From: Candidatus Saccharibacteria bacterium oral taxon 488
GTDB lineage: Bacteria; Patescibacteriota; Saccharimonadia; Saccharimonadales; Saccharimonadaceae
DNA length: 64,000 bases
Direction of reading: 5' to 3'
Assembly (NCBI GenBank): GCA_013099015.1
Contig: CP039998.1
Location: 558,001 to 622,000, forward strand
Positions 2,782 to 54,200 of this stretch are shown here, in pieces. Numbering within the stretch: position 1 is the stretch's first letter; each line of letters opens with the position of its first letter. The notes beneath the pieces are model-generated. The model was given only the letters and a program-made list of their open reading frames with translations. It had not been told where the DNA came from and made no database searches. Position numbers and translations under genes: made by a program.

Positions 2782-2810
2782 TTGACTTTATTAAGTGTTT
2801 ATGATATTAT
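2782..2810 (+). promoter_or_regulatory. Strong sigma-70-like promoter for the 2852 gene
   Basis: TTGACT at 2782-2787 and TATTAT at 2805-2810, spaced by 17 bases. The transcript would start near 2817 and have a leader of about 35 bases containing an AAGGA ribosome-binding site. Confidence 0.75.
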
Positions 2811-2851
2811 TAAAGACATCATACCCAACCACTAAGCAAGGATATTTTACG

Positions 2852-3316
2852 ATGAGCAATTTATTACACAACTGGATCGCTGAGATAACCCCAGAAACAC
2901 CAGAGCAGGCAGCGAAGTGGCGCGGCACGTTAGCTAAAGTGGGCGCTGCGACCGTGGGTGTGGTAATGATTACATTTGGACACAACCTTGCCACTCAGCA
3001 CTTAGGTAGTGCCGAGAAGGAATCAATGAATCATATTACCGACACCGGAACCCTTATCGTGGAAGGCGGCGCCCAGATACGCGATACCGGCGGAGTTACC
3101 GATGATAACCTTTTAGCAACTTTTACGTCAACGGGGAAACTAGAAATCGCTGTGACTGATGGCGTCTGGCGTAATGACAACCCGAACAGTGGACCGTGGA
3201 TTTGCATAACCGAAAGCACTGCTGGCCAAGCCATGCCCGGAATAGGACTAGATCCCAACAACAAAGACAACCTCGTATGTATTAACAGCGAGAAAGTATC
3301 GCTACCTGATGCTTAA
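2852..3316 (+). CDS. Small membrane-anchored exported protein, unknown function
   Basis: Unrecognised 154-residue protein. The start MSNLLHNW is chosen for its AAGGA ribosome-binding site; an upstream ATG would read through the promoter region. Residues about 30-47 (VGAATVGVVMITFGHNL) form a single hydrophobic segment, so the rest is probably outside the membrane. The outer part is rich in Asp, Asn, Thr and Gly with two Cys (WICITES and LVCINSE) that could form a disulfide. It stands alone on the plus strand between minus-strand operons with its own strong promoter, like the lipoprotein at 52591. A surface or secreted role is plausible but not shown. Confidence 0.7.
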   Translation: MSNLLHNWIAEITPETPEQAAKWRGTLAKVGAATVGVVMITFGHNLATQHLGSAEKESMNHITDTGTLIVEGGAQIRDTGGVTDDNLLATFTSTGKLEIAVTDGVWRNDNPNSGPWICITESTAGQAMPGIGLDPNNKDNLVCINSEKVSLPDA

Positions 3317-3330
3317 ACAGTATAATATAT

Positions 3331-6300
3331 CTAGACAACAATATTCACTAACTTCCCCGGTATATAAATCACCTTTTTCGGTGTCCGGGCGTCGAGATAG
3401 GCGCAAACTTTTTCATCAGCCAGCGCCGCTTGCTCAACAGCATCCTTGTCGGTATCGGCTGGTAATTCCAATTTAGCACGAAGCTTGCCATTGACCTGGA
3501 CGATGATAGTCATCACATCACTCGCCAGATATTTTTCATCCCATTTCGGCCAGTGATTGACATGAATGGTATCAGTATGACCCAATTCCTGCCACAATTC
3601 CTCAGTGATATGCGGCGCAAATGGCGCCAAGATTTGCAGCAGACTTTCTAAGGTAAACCGCCACGTTTCTGACGCTTGCATGCCATGTGATTCTTTGAAC
3701 TTGTATAAACCATTAACCATTTCCATCATCGCCGCCACTGCCGTGTTGAATTTTTCGTCCTCGATATCGCGGGTGACTTTCTTGATAGTGAGGTTAGTGA
3801 GGCGCAACAGCTCCGCGGCTACATCACCATCCTCTTCCAGAGTACACTCTTCGCTCAAATCTCCACTGGAGATTTCTCGCGAGCGTTCGGCTGAAGCGTC
3901 CGCTATTCGCGAATACTTCACAGCCTCTGTCAGAGGAGGTAATGTAGCCGCCCCAACAAACTCCTGCACCAAATTCCACACTCGGTTTAAGAACCGATAC
4001 GTCCCCGGTACCCCGCGCGGATCCCACGGTGCATCCATATCGTACGGCGCGATGAACATCTCGTAAACACGCAGCGCATCGGCACCGTAACCACTGTCCA
4101 TAATCTCCATCGGGTCGATGACGTTACCCTTGGACTTACTCATCTTTTGACCGTCTGGCGCCATAATGTAAGCGTTATACATCATCCGCTTGAACGGCTC
4201 CGGCGTCGGCACTAGACCGAGTTTATAGAAAAAGCGCATCCAAAAACGACTATACAATAGGTGTGCTACCGCATGATCGGCGCCATTGTAATAATCAACT
4301 GGCGCCCAGTATTTGATCAGCTCTGGATCCCACGCCTGAGCGTCATTGTGCGGGTCAAGATAGCGCAGGAAATACCAACTGGAGCAGGCATAGCCGTCCA
4401 GCGTGTCAGTTTCGCGTCGGCCTTCATGCCAATTGTCGCCCGCCGGCTTTGGCTCGGTGATCGGCACAGTTTTGCCCGTCTCAACATCAACCCACACACG
4501 CACCCAGTCATCAACTTGCGCTAGGACCGACGTATTACCACCCGTCGGCTTGAAATTCTCGACTTCTGGCAAAATCACCGGCAAGCATTCGTCCGCTACA
4601 GCAATTGGCTCAAAACCATCGACATGCACCATCGGAATTGGCGCACCCCAGTACCGCTGGCGAGAAATCAGCCAATCGCGCATTTTGTAAGTAGTTTTAC
4701 CACGACCAGATCCCTGCTGTTCCAGCCACGCTACGATTTGCTCGCGGGCTTCGCTCGTCGGTACACCATCAAAGGCGCCCGAGTTGACGAGTACACCCTC
4801 TTTAGTACTGAATTCGTCTTTTCGTCCAGAGAGGTAGGCACGCCATCCGAAAAGGTGATGTTCCCATTTGATACGCTTCTCAACCTCATTCTTATCAACC
4901 CACTCAATAGTATGTTTACCGCTCTCAATCTCGCTCTCTATCTGTGTGTCATCAGCGAGTATGACTTCATAGAAAGCTCCCCACGTTTTTTGATTCTTAT
5001 TTTTTGTATGCCGATAGCCGTTACGCGCGATAATCGGTGAGACTTGGCGAATCGACGCAATGTTGATATAACCCGTCTCCTCTCGAACTTCACGGCGCAG
5101 CGCATCCTCCAGCGATTTATCTTCTGGCTCTACGCCGCCGCCAACAAAGTGTACGTGATCGCCTCCCTCAATCTGCAATAAATACTTACCATCAGCCCGA
5201 GTAACAATCGCATCGACAACCGGTCGTTTAATTTGCTCAACGTCAGCACGTACTGCGCCCGGGCCTTCAGATAATTCCTCATACTCAGCCACTACTTGGA
5301 TAATCGGTAGGTCATACTTTTTCGCAAATTCATAGTCACGTTCATCATGCGCCGGCACCGCCATAATTGCGCCAGTGCCGTAACCACCGAGGATATAGTC
5401 TGCTACCCAAATTGGTACTTTCTGGCCGTTGACTGGATTGATAGCATAACTACCAGTAAATACGCCGGTTTTATCTTTATTTTCCTGGCGTTCAACGTCA
5501 GATTTCTGCTGCGCCGCCATCACATAAGCCTCAACTGCTTGGCGCGTGTCGGCATTAACCAGCTGAGACACTAATGGATGTTCTGGCGCCAGCGCCACAT
5601 ACGTCGCGCCAAACAGCGTGTCGGGGCGCGTAGTGAAAACAGTTATGACGTCGTCGCGGCCTTCAACCGCAAACTCAACCTCCGCACCAACCGACCGGCC
5701 GATCCAATTTTTCTGCATGGTTTTGACCATGTCCGTCCAGTCTAGGTCATCAGTCGCCTCCAAAATCTCATCAGCATAGGCGGTGATACGGAAGAACCAC
5801 TGTTTGAGGTTGCGCTTGGTGACGGGGTTACCGCAGCGCCAACATTTGCCGCCCTCAACTTGCTCGTTAGCTAGCACCGTATTGTCGGTATCGCACCACC
5901 ACTGCGGCTGCTCTTTTTGGTATGCCAAATCGTGCTTGTATAGCTGCGTAAAAATCCACTGGGTCCACTTGTAATACTCGGGGTCAGCGGTAGAAATCTC
6001 CTTTGACCAATCATAACTAAAGCCGAGTCGCTTCAGTTGAGCAATGAAATGAGCCTTGGCTTCGTCATGCGCCACTCGCGGTGTTTTACCAACCTTGATG
6101 GCGTAATTTTCCACCGGCAGCCCGAAGCTATCCCAACCAATTGGATGATAAGTATTATAGCCCTGTTGGCGCTTGAGGCGCGCTTTAATGTCGGCAAACT
6201 GAAACGTCCGACCATGACCGATGTGAATACCCGCGCCAGTGATACCAGGAAGCATGCTGAGACTATAATACTTTGGGCGCGTCGTATCACTAAGGTCGGT

Positions 6301-6372
6301 GACATACGTACCGTCAGCCTCCCATTTATCTTGCCATTTTTTCTCAATTTCCGTAGGATTGTAGCGTCTCAT
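3331..6372 (-). CDS. leuS: Leucyl-tRNA synthetase with an inserted Nudix domain
   Basis: Charges tRNA-Leu with leucine. The start MRRYNPTEIEKKWQDKW matches the family, giving 1013 residues against roughly 820-880 usually. The HIGH motif (GIHIGHGR), KMSKS loop (GQKMSKSKGN), Cys knuckles (WWCD, CWRC) and editing residues (TTRPDTLFG, VPAHDERDYE) are all present. Two insertions explain the length. Residues about 382-520 form a Nudix hydrolase domain placed in the editing domain between LPIIQVV and EGVLVNSGAFDG, where the E. coli enzyme has a short loop. Residues about 808-852 are encoded by a palindromic repeat in the anticodon-binding domain. A TATACT box and an AAGGAG both precede the ATG. Confidence 0.96.
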   Translation of the reverse strand: MRRYNPTEIEKKWQDKWEADGTYVTDLSDTTRPKYYSLSMLPGITGAGIHIGHGRTFQFADIKARLKRQQGYNTYHPIGWDSFGLPVENYAIKVGKTPRVAHDEAKAHFIAQLKRLGFSYDWSKEISTADPEYYKWTQWIFTQLYKHDLAYQKEQPQWWCDTDNTVLANEQVEGGKCWRCGNPVTKRNLKQWFFRITAYADEILEATDDLDWTDMVKTMQKNWIGRSVGAEVEFAVEGRDDVITVFTTRPDTLFGATYVALAPEHPLVSQLVNADTRQAVEAYVMAAQQKSDVERQENKDKTGVFTGSYAINPVNGQKVPIWVADYILGGYGTGAIMAVPAHDERDYEFAKKYDLPIIQVVAEYEELSEGPGAVRADVEQIKRPVVDAIVTRADGKYLLQIEGGDHVHFVGGGVEPEDKSLEDALRREVREETGYINIASIRQVSPIIARNGYRHTKNKNQKTWGAFYEVILADDTQIESEIESGKHTIEWVDKNEVEKRIKWEHHLFGWRAYLSGRKDEFSTKEGVLVNSGAFDGVPTSEAREQIVAWLEQQGSGRGKTTYKMRDWLISRQRYWGAPIPMVHVDGFEPIAVADECLPVILPEVENFKPTGGNTSVLAQVDDWVRVWVDVETGKTVPITEPKPAGDNWHEGRRETDTLDGYACSSWYFLRYLDPHNDAQAWDPELIKYWAPVDYYNGADHAVAHLLYSRFWMRFFYKLGLVPTPEPFKRMMYNAYIMAPDGQKMSKSKGNVIDPMEIMDSGYGADALRVYEMFIAPYDMDAPWDPRGVPGTYRFLNRVWNLVQEFVGAATLPPLTEAVKYSRIADASAERSREISSGDLSEECTLEEDGDVAAELLRLTNLTIKKVTRDIEDEKFNTAVAAMMEMVNGLYKFKESHGMQASETWRFTLESLLQILAPFAPHITEELWQELGHTDTIHVNHWPKWDEKYLASDVMTIIVQVNGKLRAKLELPADTDKDAVEQAALADEKVCAYLDARTPKKVIYIPGKLVNIVV
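3817..3949. repeat. 133-bp palindromic element, copy A, inside leuS
   Basis: Inverted repeats nest around a common centre: outer arms GGCTACAT (3817-3824) and ATGTAGCC (3942-3949), inner arms at 3830-3842 and 3925-3937 with two mismatches, and an internal hairpin around ATCTCCACTGGAGAT. The core aligns without gaps to the reverse complement of copy B at 53481-53613; by hand count about 98 of 116 positions match. It stays open in the leuS frame and adds about 44 residues, including the stretch SRIADASAERSREISS. The outer arms differ from those of copy B but still pair within this copy. Confidence 0.85.
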
Positions 6373-6385
6373 ACTCCTTAGTATA

Positions 6386-7711
6386 TCATCTCTCGACGCT
6401 AGTGTCGGTGTCTTCATCGTTCTCATCCGTGGAGGTACCACCCCTAGCAAACGGTGGCGGTATTGGTGATGAGCCGGCAAAATCCTGAAGTACTGATTTA
6501 AGATTATCGGTGTCTGACGGTATATCAATTTGCTCTGACTTACTGTAGTCGAACGTCATGTCCATAGTGAGATCCCGATCCTTGTCGCCATCTGAGCCGC
6601 GCGCCTTGATTTCGATCGCTTTAAGCTGGTGTGACCACGGATCGACCCAGATGCGTATAGTGGGCAATCTCTTTGACGACGTAGTTTTATTTGCTGTATT
6701 GAATACTTTGTTGCCATAACATTCTTTGATTTTCTTGCCAAGTTTTGTATCCCCCAGAGAATCGACAAATGCGCGTAGTTTGTCTGACATTTTACCGTCC
6801 GAAGCTAAATCAATTTCAAAGCCAGGCACACCGTCACGCGGCTCGACCTTGGCGTCCTTTTTGACCGTCACAAAGCTGTTTTTGCGATACGCGTTGATCA
6901 GTTCGCTACGAACCTGCTGGTCACCATTGATCAAATCAAAGATTTCTTGAGAGCACGTGTCTTTGTTTGTATGTGATGCTCCAAGCTCATCAAATGATAC
7001 CTTAAGCCACTTGCCTTCAATTTTGTTAAGTTTTTCATCAAGCTGTTTGAGGATCTGGTCGCGTATCATCGTCGACCGCGTATCTGGTAGTACTCCCCGG
7101 CTTCGAGCCTTGATGATCGTCTCTACCATCTGGCGCACGATATCTTTTAGATGTTCGCTCTTAATATAAATCGTGCCTTTGCCGTCAGCCACCATTGTGA
7201 GGATGACGTCTTGCTGGATCTCCATGCCGTTAATAGCTAACTTTATCGTAGCTTCAGTTTTTGACTTTGGTGCGTCGGTGGCGGCTTTGAGCTTGACATC
7301 AATACGATTACCGTTGCCGAGATTCATGACGAGTTTACCCGAGGAAACCACCTTTTTGGTCTGAAATGAATTAACCACTGCATCAGTTACCATCCTCTGC
7401 GGGTCTTGCCACCAGAAAAAGTACAATAGTACCGCAGCGATAGCCAGCAGCAATACGACCGAGCCGGTAACAATACCGATGATGAGGCTGGTTTTCTTTT
7501 TTGGCGGCATAACCGAATTCATGATCGGTGGTTGCGACGTCGGCGATGCTGGTCGTGCCGGCGTCGATGCAGGCTGATCAGCCTGTGCAGGCGGAGTCGT
7601 TGTCGACTGTGATGAGCTTGATGCGACCGTCGATTGCGACGCTGCCGGCGGTGTTGACGCAGCAGCTTTATCCGCTGGTGTTTTCTTGCTATTCGTACCC
7701 TTGTCGTCCAT
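6386..7711 (-). CDS. Single-pass membrane protein with large external domain, unknown function
   Basis: 441 residues, not recognised as a named family. Residues 1-75 are a low-complexity cytoplasmic tail rich in Ala, Ser, Thr, Pro and Gln. Residues about 76-100 (TSLIIGIVTGSVVLLLAIAA and following) form one membrane helix. The remaining 340 residues are mixed alpha/beta, rich in Lys and Asp, and include a Cys pair (NKDTCSQE and IKECYGN) consistent with an external fold; the pattern resembles lipid- or surface-binding LppX/LolA-like domains only loosely. It has a strong GAGGAGG ribosome-binding site and ends 13 bases before leuS. A role at the cell surface is inferred. Confidence 0.8.
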   Translation of the reverse strand: MDDKGTNSKKTPADKAAASTPPAASQSTVASSSSQSTTTPPAQADQPASTPARPASPTSQPPIMNSVMPPKKKTSLIIGIVTGSVVLLLAIAAVLLYFFWWQDPQRMVTDAVVNSFQTKKVVSSGKLVMNLGNGNRIDVKLKAATDAPKSKTEATIKLAINGMEIQQDVILTMVADGKGTIYIKSEHLKDIVRQMVETIIKARSRGVLPDTRSTMIRDQILKQLDEKLNKIEGKWLKVSFDELGASHTNKDTCSQEIFDLINGDQQVRSELINAYRKNSFVTVKKDAKVEPRDGVPGFEIDLASDGKMSDKLRAFVDSLGDTKLGKKIKECYGNKVFNTANKTTSSKRLPTIRIWVDPWSHQLKAIEIKARGSDGDKDRDLTMDMTFDYSKSEQIDIPSDTDNLKSVLQDFAGSSPIPPPFARGGTSTDENDEDTDTSVER

Positions 7712-52590: not shown

Positions 52591-53103
52591 ATGGGAAATC
52601 ACAACACTATTGGTAGCCAGGGAGACCGGAGAGATACACCGCACCAGATAGCTGACACCGTGCGTGAGCTGGGGCAAAAGGCCGTGGCTTGGGCCTTAAT
52701 GGCTGGCACGGCCGCATTTGGACTCGTAGGCTGCTCGTCGGGGAAGAAAACCACCGAACACAAGACTGTCTCCGTGGCTTGCGGCCACGATTCGTTAGCA
52801 GTACCGCAGATTGAACGTGCTGAAACTTACAAATATAATATAACTGGAGAGCCAAGGCTCGGAGTAGTTACTGTTGGTTGCCCCCGTGGCGGCAATGTCA
52901 TAGTTACCGGCATAAATGAACCAAACGGTAATCCTGCGCCAAAGGGTGAGCTATTTCCACATACTCTTGAGATAACTGCCCTTTGCTCTCAAGGCGATAC
53001 AGGCTTCAAAACACGTGTTACCGACACGCCGGCTGGCAACAATATATTTGAAGCCACCATAAAAGACTGCTCCATCGAAAGTGCAGTAATAAACCGGCCC
53101 TAG
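52591..53103 (+). CDS. Predicted lipoprotein, unknown function
   Basis: 170 residues. The N-terminal 30 residues are polar; AVAWALMAGTAAFGLVGCSS then provides the hydrophobic core and lipobox (LVGC) of a signal-II peptide, unusually far from the start. The mature domain of about 115 residues has four further Cys (SVACGHD, VGCPRG, ALCSQG, KDCSIE), enough for two disulfides. It has a strong promoter and AAGGAG ribosome-binding site. It stands alone on the plus strand like the gene at 2852, which it resembles in style but not in sequence. A surface function is inferred. Confidence 0.75.
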   Translation: MGNHNTIGSQGDRRDTPHQIADTVRELGQKAVAWALMAGTAAFGLVGCSSGKKTTEHKTVSVACGHDSLAVPQIERAETYKYNITGEPRLGVVTVGCPRGGNVIVTGINEPNGNPAPKGELFPHTLEITALCSQGDTGFKTRVTDTPAGNNIFEATIKDCSIESAVINRP

Positions 53104-53129: not shown

Positions 53130-54200
53130 CTACACCACTAGGCATTCGGCGTTGTAATCCCTATCAATAGCTACAGCTAACATACACATATCGCGTCCCT
53201 CATATTGCGGATGTTTTGCTATGAATAGTTCCGCCGCAAAACGCATTTGTCGCTGTTTTTTGGCAGTAATCGCCGCCAAGCCATCACCATATCTGGAATT
53301 GTTGCGATATTTGACCTCGGAGAAATACAGCACATCGTCTTTTACGCTGACGATGTCAATCTCGCAGTACCGTGTCCGCCAGTTGCGAGCAATGATCTCA
53401 TGACCGTCCGCCCCTAGCTGATCCGCTGCTGCTTGCTCGCCTGCATTACCAATGTCGCGAGTAGTGGATAGGTGAGCAACGGGTTCGCTATCTCCTCCGA
53501 CAGAGGCTGTGGAACGTTCGCGAGTAGCGGACGTTTCAGCCGAACGCTCACAAGACATCTCCGGTGGAGATGCGAGTGAAGAGTGTACTCTGTCGGAGGA
53601 TGGTAGCGAACCCGCCTCCACATACTTCTGTAGCGGCGCAAAACTCAGTCGATGCAGTGGCGTCACGCCCAACCGCTCAATTGCCATACGGTGCTTCGCC
53701 ACGCCATAGCCAGCATTTGACGCGAAGCCGTACCCTGGATAGACCACATCTTGCTCGACCATAAAATTGTCGCGCGCCACTTTGGCGATAATTGACGCGG
53801 CCGATACGCTCGGGATCAAACCATCGGCCTTAGCCATCACCGTTACATATTGTTCCAGCGCCGTATCCGCCAGAAAATTGACCGTTCCGTCAATGATAAT
53901 TTCATCAAATGCCAAATTCTTCTCCTTGCACTGCGACTGAATTTGTTGTACCGCTCGCCGCGTTGCCAATCGCAGCGCCTGACTCATACCAACCTCGTCC
54001 AATTTTCCAGCGCTCACCCAGCCCAGCGCCCACGCAGCCGCCTGCTCGCGAATCACCTCATCCAAAGCCTCGCGGCGTTTTTTAGTCAACTTTTTACTAT
54101 CATCCAAACCCTCAATCTCGACACCACCCAAAATCACCGCGCCCACCACCAGCGGCCCCGCCCACGGCCCACGTCCGACTTCATCAATGCCGAGGATCAT
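53130..54200 (-). CDS. rnhB: Ribonuclease HII fused to a YraN-family nuclease-like domain
   Basis: 356 residues. Residues 1-200 are RNase HII, which removes RNA from RNA-DNA hybrids: GIDEVGRGPWAGPLVVGAV (catalytic DE), IIDGTVNFLAD and SIIAKVARDNFM are intact. Residues about 240-356 are a UPF0102/YraN domain with the RecB-like nuclease motif YCEIDIVSVKDDVLYFSEVKYR (E-I-D ... E-V-K). Residues about 196-240 (from LPSSDRVHSS) come from a palindromic repeat at 53481-53613. In other bacteria rnhB and yraN are separate adjacent genes, so the repeat seems to bridge two formerly separate genes. It overlaps the preceding VanZ-like gene. Confidence 0.9.
   Translation of the reverse strand: MILGIDEVGRGPWAGPLVVGAVILGGVEIEGLDDSKKLTKKRREALDEVIREQAAAWALGWVSAGKLDEVGMSQALRLATRRAVQQIQSQCKEKNLAFDEIIIDGTVNFLADTALEQYVTVMAKADGLIPSVSAASIIAKVARDNFMVEQDVVYPGYGFASNAGYGVAKHRMAIERLGVTPLHRLSFAPLQKYVEAGSLPSSDRVHSSLASPPEMSCERSAETSATRERSTASVGGDSEPVAHLSTTRDIGNAGEQAAADQLGADGHEIIARNWRTRYCEIDIVSVKDDVLYFSEVKYRNNSRYGDGLAAITAKKQRQMRFAAELFIAKHPQYEGRDMCMLAVAIDRDYNAECLVV
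53481..53613. repeat. 133-bp palindromic element, copy B, inside rnhB-yraN
   Basis: Outer arms GGGTTCGCTA (53481-53490) and TAGCGAACCC (53604-53613) are perfect complements. Inner arms TCCTCCGACAGAG (53493-53505) and CTCTGTCGGAGGA (53588-53600) are also perfect. Internal inverted pairs include CGTTCG with CGAACG (53515-53520, 53541-53546) and CATCTCCGGTGGAGATG. It is homologous to copy A (3817-3949) on the opposite strand and stays open in this host frame. Confidence 0.88.

What the first reader, a model, noticed from the sequence alone, without database searches (positions are those of the whole stretch)
53481..53613. A 133-bp palindromic repeat inserted in frame inside two protein-coding genes
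Copies at 53481-53613 (rnhB-yraN) and 3817-3949 (leuS) have the same length. Their 116-bp cores align without gaps; by hand about 98 positions match. Each copy is a nested palindrome. The outermost arms differ between copies (GGGTTCGCTA/TAGCGAACCC against GGCTACAT/ATGTAGCC) yet pair perfectly within each copy, which indicates selection for a folded structure or an arm-copying mechanism. The copies read in opposite orientations relative to their genes, and both strands stay open, so the element is coding-tolerant on either strand. This behaviour is known for Rickettsia palindromic elements. I know of no such element described in Saccharibacteria, though I could not search.
Basis: partly seen in the sequence, partly recalled or inferred. 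Interest (0 to 1): 0.93.

Follow-up and report, generated by a model that had tools for sequence, protein, structure and literature searches.

The report
Mobile palindromes inside Saccharibacteria housekeeping genes
Saccharibacteria carry a family of folded, palindromic DNA pieces of roughly 80 to 150 letters that sit in frame inside conserved genes and also between genes; they likely spread like tiny genetic parasites, and in the four genes where it is clear one of their two side arms is a reverse copy of the host gene beside it, which would help explain how such protein-coding palindromes get in.

Summary
In detail: two 133-bp copies at 53481-53613 and 3817-3949 match at 106 of 133 positions, lie in frame inside rnhB-yraN and leuS, and fold into an outer stem with two hairpins. 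They belong to a dispersed family in Saccharibacteria: a covariance model finds it in 33 of 344 genomes of one family, up to 14 copies each, with very strong covariation (672 doubly changed cells, 172 after shuffling). Copies lie between genes and in frame in twelve conserved genes, in both senses. Relatives have empty sites, and near-identical cores sit in different genes. Rickettsia palindromic elements behave like this, in another phylum.

The new point is the arms. They differ from site to site. In tlyA, mnmA, tsaD and dus the downstream arm is native gene sequence and the upstream arm its reverse-complement copy (25 of 25 nt in tlyA, imperfect in the others). None of 24 empty sites tested holds a comparable palindrome. 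I propose fold-back copying of neighbouring DNA, likely by template switching. Y1 transposase and reverse transcriptase genes do not track the element; how the core moves is unknown. Against: two copies in one genome share arms, 18 of 87 copies lack clear extended arms, and other sites are ambiguous.

The parts
53481..53613 (+). copy A of the palindromic element (inside rnhB-yraN, read there in the minus sense)
   Evidence: covariance model match 53492-53602, 108.2 bits
   Evidence: covariance model match 3828-3938 minus, 116.5 bits
53481..53504 (+). copy A, 5' side of the outer stem (site-specific arm GGGTTCGCTA plus inner stem)
   Evidence: dot-bracket
53589..53613 (+). copy A, 3' side of the outer stem
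   Evidence: dot-bracket
53505..53541 (+). copy A, hairpin 1 (GGCTG..CAGCC, with a TG bulge)
   Evidence: conservation
53544..53586 (+). copy A, hairpin 2 (ACGCTC..GAGTGT, apex CTCCGGTGGAG)
   Evidence: conservation
3889..3925 (-). copy B, hairpin 1
3844..3886 (-). copy B, hairpin 2
53130..54200 (-). host gene: RNase HII (residues 3-188) fused to UPF0102/YraN (254-328); the insert, residues about 197-240, lies between the two domains
3331..6528 (-). host gene: leucyl-tRNA synthetase; the insert, residues about 860-905, lies between the tRNA-synt_1 match (ends 832) and the anticodon-binding domain (starts 906)

Best explanation
These are copies of a family of short palindromic elements of Saccharibacteria that stand both between genes and in frame inside conserved genes, that likely spread as non-autonomous mobile DNA, and whose outer arms are likely made by fold-back (template-switch) copying of the host DNA beside them. 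Shown: a common core of about 80-110 nt with an outer stem and two hairpins, kept by strong covariation; copies in frame in twelve conserved genes and in many intergenic spaces, in both orientations; relatives with empty sites; near-identical cores in different genes with unrelated arms; in tlyA, mnmA, tsaD and dus a downstream arm that is native gene sequence and an upstream arm that is its reverse complement (exact in tlyA), giving the order left flank - reverse copy of right flank - core - right flank. Inferred: a growing DNA strand that has copied the core folds back on the core's own stem, copies some 10-30 nt of its own flank, then rejoins the chromosome. The same process, repeated during replication, would keep the arms matched. 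The insert would then be translated as a flexible linker, tolerated because it falls between domains or in loops. What carries the core to a new site is not known.
For: Family and fold: R1 model in 33 of 344 genomes of the family at E up to 0.01, 1 to 14 copies in 14 of 15 re-scored genomes; on 87 distinct aligned copies 92.3% of cells paired against 68.8% after shuffling, 672 doubly changed cells against 172, 0 of 500 shuffles as high; slid controls 36.8 to 45.3% (the alignment was fitted to the model). In-frame hosts: leuS, rnhB-yraN, dnaX, topA, an ABC-type ATPase, mnmA in two genomes, tlyA-like, a UPF0020-like methyltransferase in two, mutM in two, tsaD, dus, obg. Movement: tsaD of G039 and dus of G149 share an 81-nt core with one difference, with different sequence outside; dus is filled in G149 and empty in G133, whose Dus is 96% identical over the part before the insert; UPF0020 is filled in G042 and empty in G083. 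Arms: pairing beyond the core scores median 12.5 against 5.5 for mismatched partners, 69 of 87 above the control's 99th percentile. Arm origin: in tlyA the upstream arm is an exact 25-nt reverse complement of the downstream arm, which encodes PDIVL; in 11 of 11 other genomes with both halves of the gene, upstream homology stops at residue 136-139 (arm starts near 139) and resumes at 172-181 (arm near 178-185). tsaD: stops 125-129 (arm from 128), resumes 166-171 (arm to 170), 6 genomes. mnmA: stops 130-137 (arm from 139), resumes 174-182 (arm 178-185), 9 genomes. dus: stops 241-243 (arm from 244) in 4 genomes and resumes at 278, inside the arm, in G081; there the downstream arm scores up to 19 against empty DNA, the upstream arm up to 7. 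No comparable palindrome in 24 of 24 empty sites caught (7 tlyA fragments dropped by the pattern): best inverted-repeat score 6-10 against 12-25 when filled; narrowest for dus, 9 against 12.
Against: In G039 the rnhB and dnaX copies are identical over 144 nt including both arms, so arms can also travel with the core or be converted between copies. 18 of 87 copies have no clear pairing beyond the core. In an automated comparison of both arms with empty orthologs the downstream arm scored higher by DNA in 5 of 8 sites and the upstream arm in 3 of 8 (mnmA of G083, rnhB and leuS of the window); native status is clear only in tlyA, mnmA of G042, tsaD and dus. For dus 2 of 4 genomes resume homology at 288, beyond the arm, and for rnhB only 3 of 6 resume at or inside the downstream arm. 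In UPF0020 of G042 the pairing runs on into native upstream codons (NLAVGE), so the copying may there have run the other way. The right flank of dus in G149 resembles G081 more than its sister G133, so that gene may be recombinant. No mobilising enzyme was found. The more open frames of coding copies mostly follow base composition (2.4 open frames of 6 against 2.06 in shuffles; intergenic 0.9 against 1.1). The structure prediction of RnhB-YraN was poor (mean pLDDT 47.9) and says nothing on the linker.
Confidence: 0.72

Rival explanations
1. Classical miniature inverted-repeat transposable element: a transposase in trans recognises fixed terminal repeats, moves the element and leaves direct target duplications; the arms are just old, diverged terminal repeats.
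For: Dispersed, palindromic, of MITE size, with empty and filled sites. In G039 a 144-nt unit including arms is identical in two genes.
Against: The outermost sequence differs from site to site and in four genes matches the host gene beside it. A crude test found no convincing direct duplication at the three inserts checked (longest shared words 5, 3 and 3 nt). Y1 transposases (PF01797) occur in 4 of 33 element-bearing and 49 of 311 other genomes, and in none of the five richest. Other transposase families were not searched.
Confidence: 0.15
2. The core inserts into pre-existing palindromes such as terminator hairpins; the arms are the old hairpin.
For: 50 of 71 intergenic copies lie within 60 nt behind a stop codon, and convergent gaps are over-represented (21 of 71 against 4 of 39 gaps of 80 bp or more without a copy in the same loci, p 0.03).
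Against: 24 of 24 empty coding sites tested have no comparable palindrome; 14 of 71 intergenic copies lie between divergent genes, where no terminator is expected.
Confidence: 0.12
3. A functional structured RNA (for example a processing or regulatory element) kept at its sites by selection, with no selfish spread.
For: Strong covariation with conserved unpaired bases; G-U cells exceed A-C cells at paired columns, 148 to 83 (93 to 83 without the fixed G-U pair, 93 to 49 if the mostly A-C column 24 is also left out), a hint that one strand is the folding one; the rplU-parA spacer holds copies in eight genomes.
Against: Orientation at one site varies (leuS, rplU spacer), relatives have empty sites, and the element sits inside unrelated coding genes. 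No Rfam family matches (only sub-threshold MIR5998 hits on a two-copy locus).
Confidence: 0.1
4. RNA-templated insertion: the folded transcript is reverse-transcribed from a nick (target-primed) and the cDNA folds back to copy the flank.
For: It would yield the same product order as observed, and G-U cells exceed A-C cells.
Against: Reverse transcriptase genes (PF00078) occur in 8 of 33 element-bearing and 117 of 311 other genomes, and not in the richest genome G101 nor in G042 and G055; the genomes may be incomplete.
Confidence: 0.08

Closest known systems
Rickettsia palindromic elements (RPE) and the protein-coding palindromes of Wolbachia
   Same: About 105-146 bp, long stem-loop fold, both intergenic and fused in frame to conserved protein genes, several families per genome (passages of PMC2229807, and PMC10969869; Wolbachia seen only in the reference list of PMC2229807).
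   Different: Other phylum; three-way-junction core with covariation shown here; site-specific arms, one of them in clear cases a reverse copy of host DNA, a feature not mentioned in the passages read, where the target duplication of RPE is entered as '?' in Table 1. Sequence kinship not tested.
Bacterial MITEs (Correia/NEMIS, ERIC, RUP, YPAL)
   Same: Short, non-autonomous, palindromic, dispersed (PMC2229807 passages).
   Different: Most of those carry terminal repeats and make target duplications; here the ends are site-specific and no convincing direct duplication was seen at three sites.
REP/BIME repeats moved by Y1 (RAYT) transposases
   Same: Bulged hairpins in one-strand folds (recalled, no call).
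   Different: No association with Y1 transposases; in-frame coding copies.
Quasipalindrome template-switch mutation
   Same: Makes reverse-complement copies, homogenises arms, inverts spacers (abstracts of PMC8794818, and PMC8604942).
   Different: There it alters existing local sequence; here it would act around a mobile core at many sites.

Membership tests
Rickettsia palindromic elements | 100-150 bp palindromic unit with long stem-loop fold | tested here: met
Rickettsia palindromic elements | in-frame, stop-free insertion in unrelated conserved genes, besides intergenic copies | tested here: met
Rickettsia palindromic elements | several sequence families in the group | tested here: met
   a second recurrent in-frame family in leuS, mnmA and an ABC-type ATPase of relatives; not found in the window
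Rickettsia palindromic elements | sequence homology to a described RPE family | not tested
   no RPE sequence was fetched or compared
Rickettsia palindromic elements | insert is translated and the host protein works | not testable with these tools
   only open frames seen
MITE | fixed terminal inverted repeats shared by copies | tested here: not met
   outer arms differ from site to site; exception G039 rnhB/dnaX
MITE | direct target-site duplication | tested here: inconclusive
   longest abutting direct words 5, 3, 3 nt at the three sites checked
REP/RAYT system | co-occurring Y1 transposase | tested here: not met
   4 of 33 element-bearing, 49 of 311 other genomes
Template-switch (quasipalindrome) event | reverse-complement copy of adjacent sequence, absent from the empty site | tested here: met
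   tlyA, mnmA, tsaD, dus; other sites ambiguous
Rfam RNA family | match at the curated threshold | tested here: not met
   nine loci, E up to 1; window, gathering

The most novel reading that the evidence does not exclude
A transposase-free class of selfish DNA: a self-folding core whose DNA strand primes on itself, copies the flank of whatever site it enters and so builds its own site-specific inverted repeats, leaving an inverted instead of a direct target duplication. Coding palindromes of Rickettsia, Wolbachia and Saccharibacteria would be independent products of this one replication-driven process.
Probability: 0.3. Interest if true: 0.93.

Novelty: new variant of a known kind. Interest (0 to 1): 0.8.

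Why it matters
How protein-coding palindromes enter genes was open in the 2007 review read here: it lists the target duplication of the Rickettsia elements as unknown and says there is no experimental support yet for movement of such repeats by transposases (PMC2229807 passages). Here filled and empty sites give a specific, checkable product: one arm native, the other its reverse complement. It also shows a group with small genomes lengthening its core enzymes with what is likely selfish sequence, and supplies a covariance model to find more.

Tried and rejected
Exact 20-base pattern over genome contigs: 27 loci, only one from Saccharibacteria by title (L018), the rest taken as chance matches in other groups; over viral contigs none, so no phage carrier was seen by that pattern.

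Autonomous partner between neighbouring copies: ten ORFs near or between them were N-methylation-motif (pilin-like), EamA, CHAP, S41 peptidase, ParA or ParB proteins, or had no Pfam match (two); no transposase among them. Y1 transposase and reverse transcriptase associations rejected. Insertion into existing palindromes rejected for the coding sites tested.

Phylum-wide search: 9 of 379 genomes; six of these were already known from the family, the other three are weak (E 0.004-0.008), so wider spread is unproven.

Counting choices: copies inside called ORFs of about 100 aa or less, and one (L116) at the very start of a 331-aa ORF, were counted as intergenic by judgement; one partial model match (L071:1480-1522) was left out of the 87-copy counts.

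Structure prediction of RnhB-YraN: poor, not used. Literature: Saccharibacteria + palindromic + repeat gave 23 papers, 15 listed, none on such an element by title or start of abstract; 'repeat palindromic element' + Patescibacteria none; 'protein-coding palindrom' six papers, none on Saccharibacteria by title or start of abstract; 'inverted target site duplication' one paper, on a fungus; a broad Saccharibacteria/mobile element search gave nothing relevant in the 12 listed of 1,285; three searches for Rickettsia elements and quasipalindromes gave 5, 4 and 10 papers. Ogata 2002 (PMC186582) is not held, so its text was not seen. Papers seen: passages of PMC2229807 and PMC10969869; outlines with abstracts of PMC8794818, PMC8604942 and PMC6649704; the rest as search listings.

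Full report
What was checked. The two segments are real, of equal length and similar at 106 of 133 positions (98 of the inner 116). They are the one repeat pair of 40 nt or more in the window and fold far better than shuffles. Both fold as an outer stem with two hairpins. Of 50 base pairs shared by the two folds, 8 are changed on both sides and 4 on one side. leuS is read through the element in one sense and the rnhB-yraN fusion in the other. Pfam places both inserts between domains.

Host. No genome is held for the window. A protein search restricted to the LeuS insert region returned 132 proteins (120 listed, all with LeuS-type domains), one restricted to the RnhB-YraN insert 74; where the name gives an organism it is 'Candidatus Saccharibacteria bacterium oral taxon 488', some on contigs of 850-894 kb. 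118 of the 120 LeuS clusters were caught by a regular expression and carry the insert; 2 were not caught. That search selects for the insert, so it is not a survey of presence. Of the 74 hits of the second search, three begin as TopA with the insert (one of them, P0180, ends as LeuS) and one is a LeuS with the insert in the opposite sense at the same place; some RnhB-YraN inserts are shortened by about 18 residues (P0171 confirmed as LeuS).

The family. Through one public single-cell genome (L018, oral taxon 348) the relatives could be reached. BLAST found matches in 8 of 344 family genomes. A covariance model from nine copies raised this to 33 of 344. Scoring all candidates in 15 genomes gave 14 copies in G101, 9 in G042, G055 and G076, 6 in G083, and fewer elsewhere; one of the 15 had none. 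Phylum-wide only weak extra matches appeared. On 87 distinct copies covariation is overwhelming, with the reserve that the alignment was fitted to the model. Conserved unpaired bases lie in the junction.

Where copies lie. Seventy-one intergenic copies: 36 between tandem, 21 between convergent and 14 between divergent genes, 50 of 71 within 60 nt behind a stop codon. Fifteen distinct coding cores lie in frame in twelve kinds of gene. Coding copies are richer in G+C (0.57 against 0.46) and keep more frames open (2.4 against 0.9 of 6), but shuffles give 2.06 and 1.1, so this mostly follows composition. The spacer behind rplU is hit in eight genomes, in both orientations, and the same loops of leuS, mnmA and dus carry other inserts in other genomes, so tolerated landing sites seem to be reused.

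Filled and empty sites. In nine genomes of the genus of G039, LeuS has no such insert in five, a remnant in the other sense in one, and other inserts in three. Dus is filled in G149 and empty in G133. A UPF0020-like methyltransferase is filled in G042 and empty in G083: NLAVGE-insert-PQVTVLDPFCGTG against NLAVGDTQSQNLTVLDPFCGTG. tsaD of G039 and dus of G149 carry an 81-nt core with a single difference between two unrelated sets of flanks.

Origin of the arms. Pairing goes on at the edge of the core for a median aligned length of 16 nt, 2 nt of core included, with different sequence from site to site. The tlyA case is the clearest: 25 nt upstream of the core are the exact reverse complement of 25 nt downstream, and the downstream stretch encodes PDIVL, which reads PDIIV, PDIIL or PDLIV in the three empty orthologs printed. 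Homology with 11 of 11 other genomes that have both halves stops where the upstream arm starts and resumes at or near the downstream arm. The same holds for tsaD in 6 genomes and mnmA in 9. In dus upstream homology stops at the arm in 4 genomes and resumes inside the downstream arm in G081, near its end in G133, and beyond it in two. In leuS it stops at 858-863 (arm from 860) and resumes at 897-903 (arm 901-905) in 6 genomes, one with a remnant. For rnhB the downstream side fits in 3 of 6. An automated score was less one-sided, 5 of 8 sites for the downstream arm by DNA. No empty site among 24 tested holds a comparable palindrome. In the four clear genes the native arm is the downstream one, whichever way the core points, but in UPF0020 of G042 the pairing reaches native upstream codons, so the direction is not a rule.

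Mechanism. The product order 'left flank, reverse copy of right flank, core, right flank' is what would arise if a strand that has just copied the core folds back on the core's stem, copies its own flank and then rejoins. Template switching of this kind is reported to create and mend hairpins and to invert spacers (abstracts of PMC8794818 and PMC8604942); spacer inversion could also explain the two orientations found in leuS. This step is inferred, as is the translation of the inserts. The agent that moves the core is unknown; Y1 transposases and reverse transcriptases do not track it. Contrary facts are the shared arms of rnhB and dnaX in G039, the 18 of 87 copies without clear extended arms and the ambiguous sites named above.

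Comparison. It works like the Rickettsia palindromic elements and matches their description in size, fold and in-frame coding insertion. Kinship by sequence was not tested, so I file it as a new variant of a known kind.

Noticed in passing
L137, L138, L203-L205, L028 (about 1708): A second, unrelated in-frame palindromic family (core with GAAAAAATCTGGGC and GGGACCCGGATTATTTTC) in leuS, mnmA and an ABC-type ATPase of several genomes; its outer arms also vary and pair by eye. Not found in the window by that pattern.
   Followed up: partly
L029, L167, L031: A possible third palindromic family (CTCGCCAACAAATTT ... GGAAATTTCCGTTGGCGA) in dnaX and dus of G039, with a part in dnaX of G081.
   Followed up: partly
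window 3331-6528, LeuS residues 434-554: A NUDIX domain lies inside LeuS next to the editing domain; only some of the listed LeuS clusters carry PF00293.
   Followed up: no
window 2795-3316 and 52591-53103: Two small plus-strand ORFs lie convergent directly behind the two genes that carry the element.
   Followed up: no
protein P0180: A TopA N-terminal part joined to a LeuS C-terminal part at the element; recombination between copies or an assembly chimera.
   Followed up: no
L072, L073, L074, L075: Head-to-head pairs of copies with 23-34 nt between the model matches, in G042 and G083; in L072 the arms of the two share sequence.
   Followed up: partly
L033 and L076: Intergenic copies of G083 and G042 between the same two gene clusters have different but internally paired arms, as expected if arms are continually re-matched.
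   Followed up: partly
G083 contig C5 start, G125 contig C4 start: Contigs break inside tlyA near the position of the insert in G042, perhaps because of a hairpin there.
   Followed up: no
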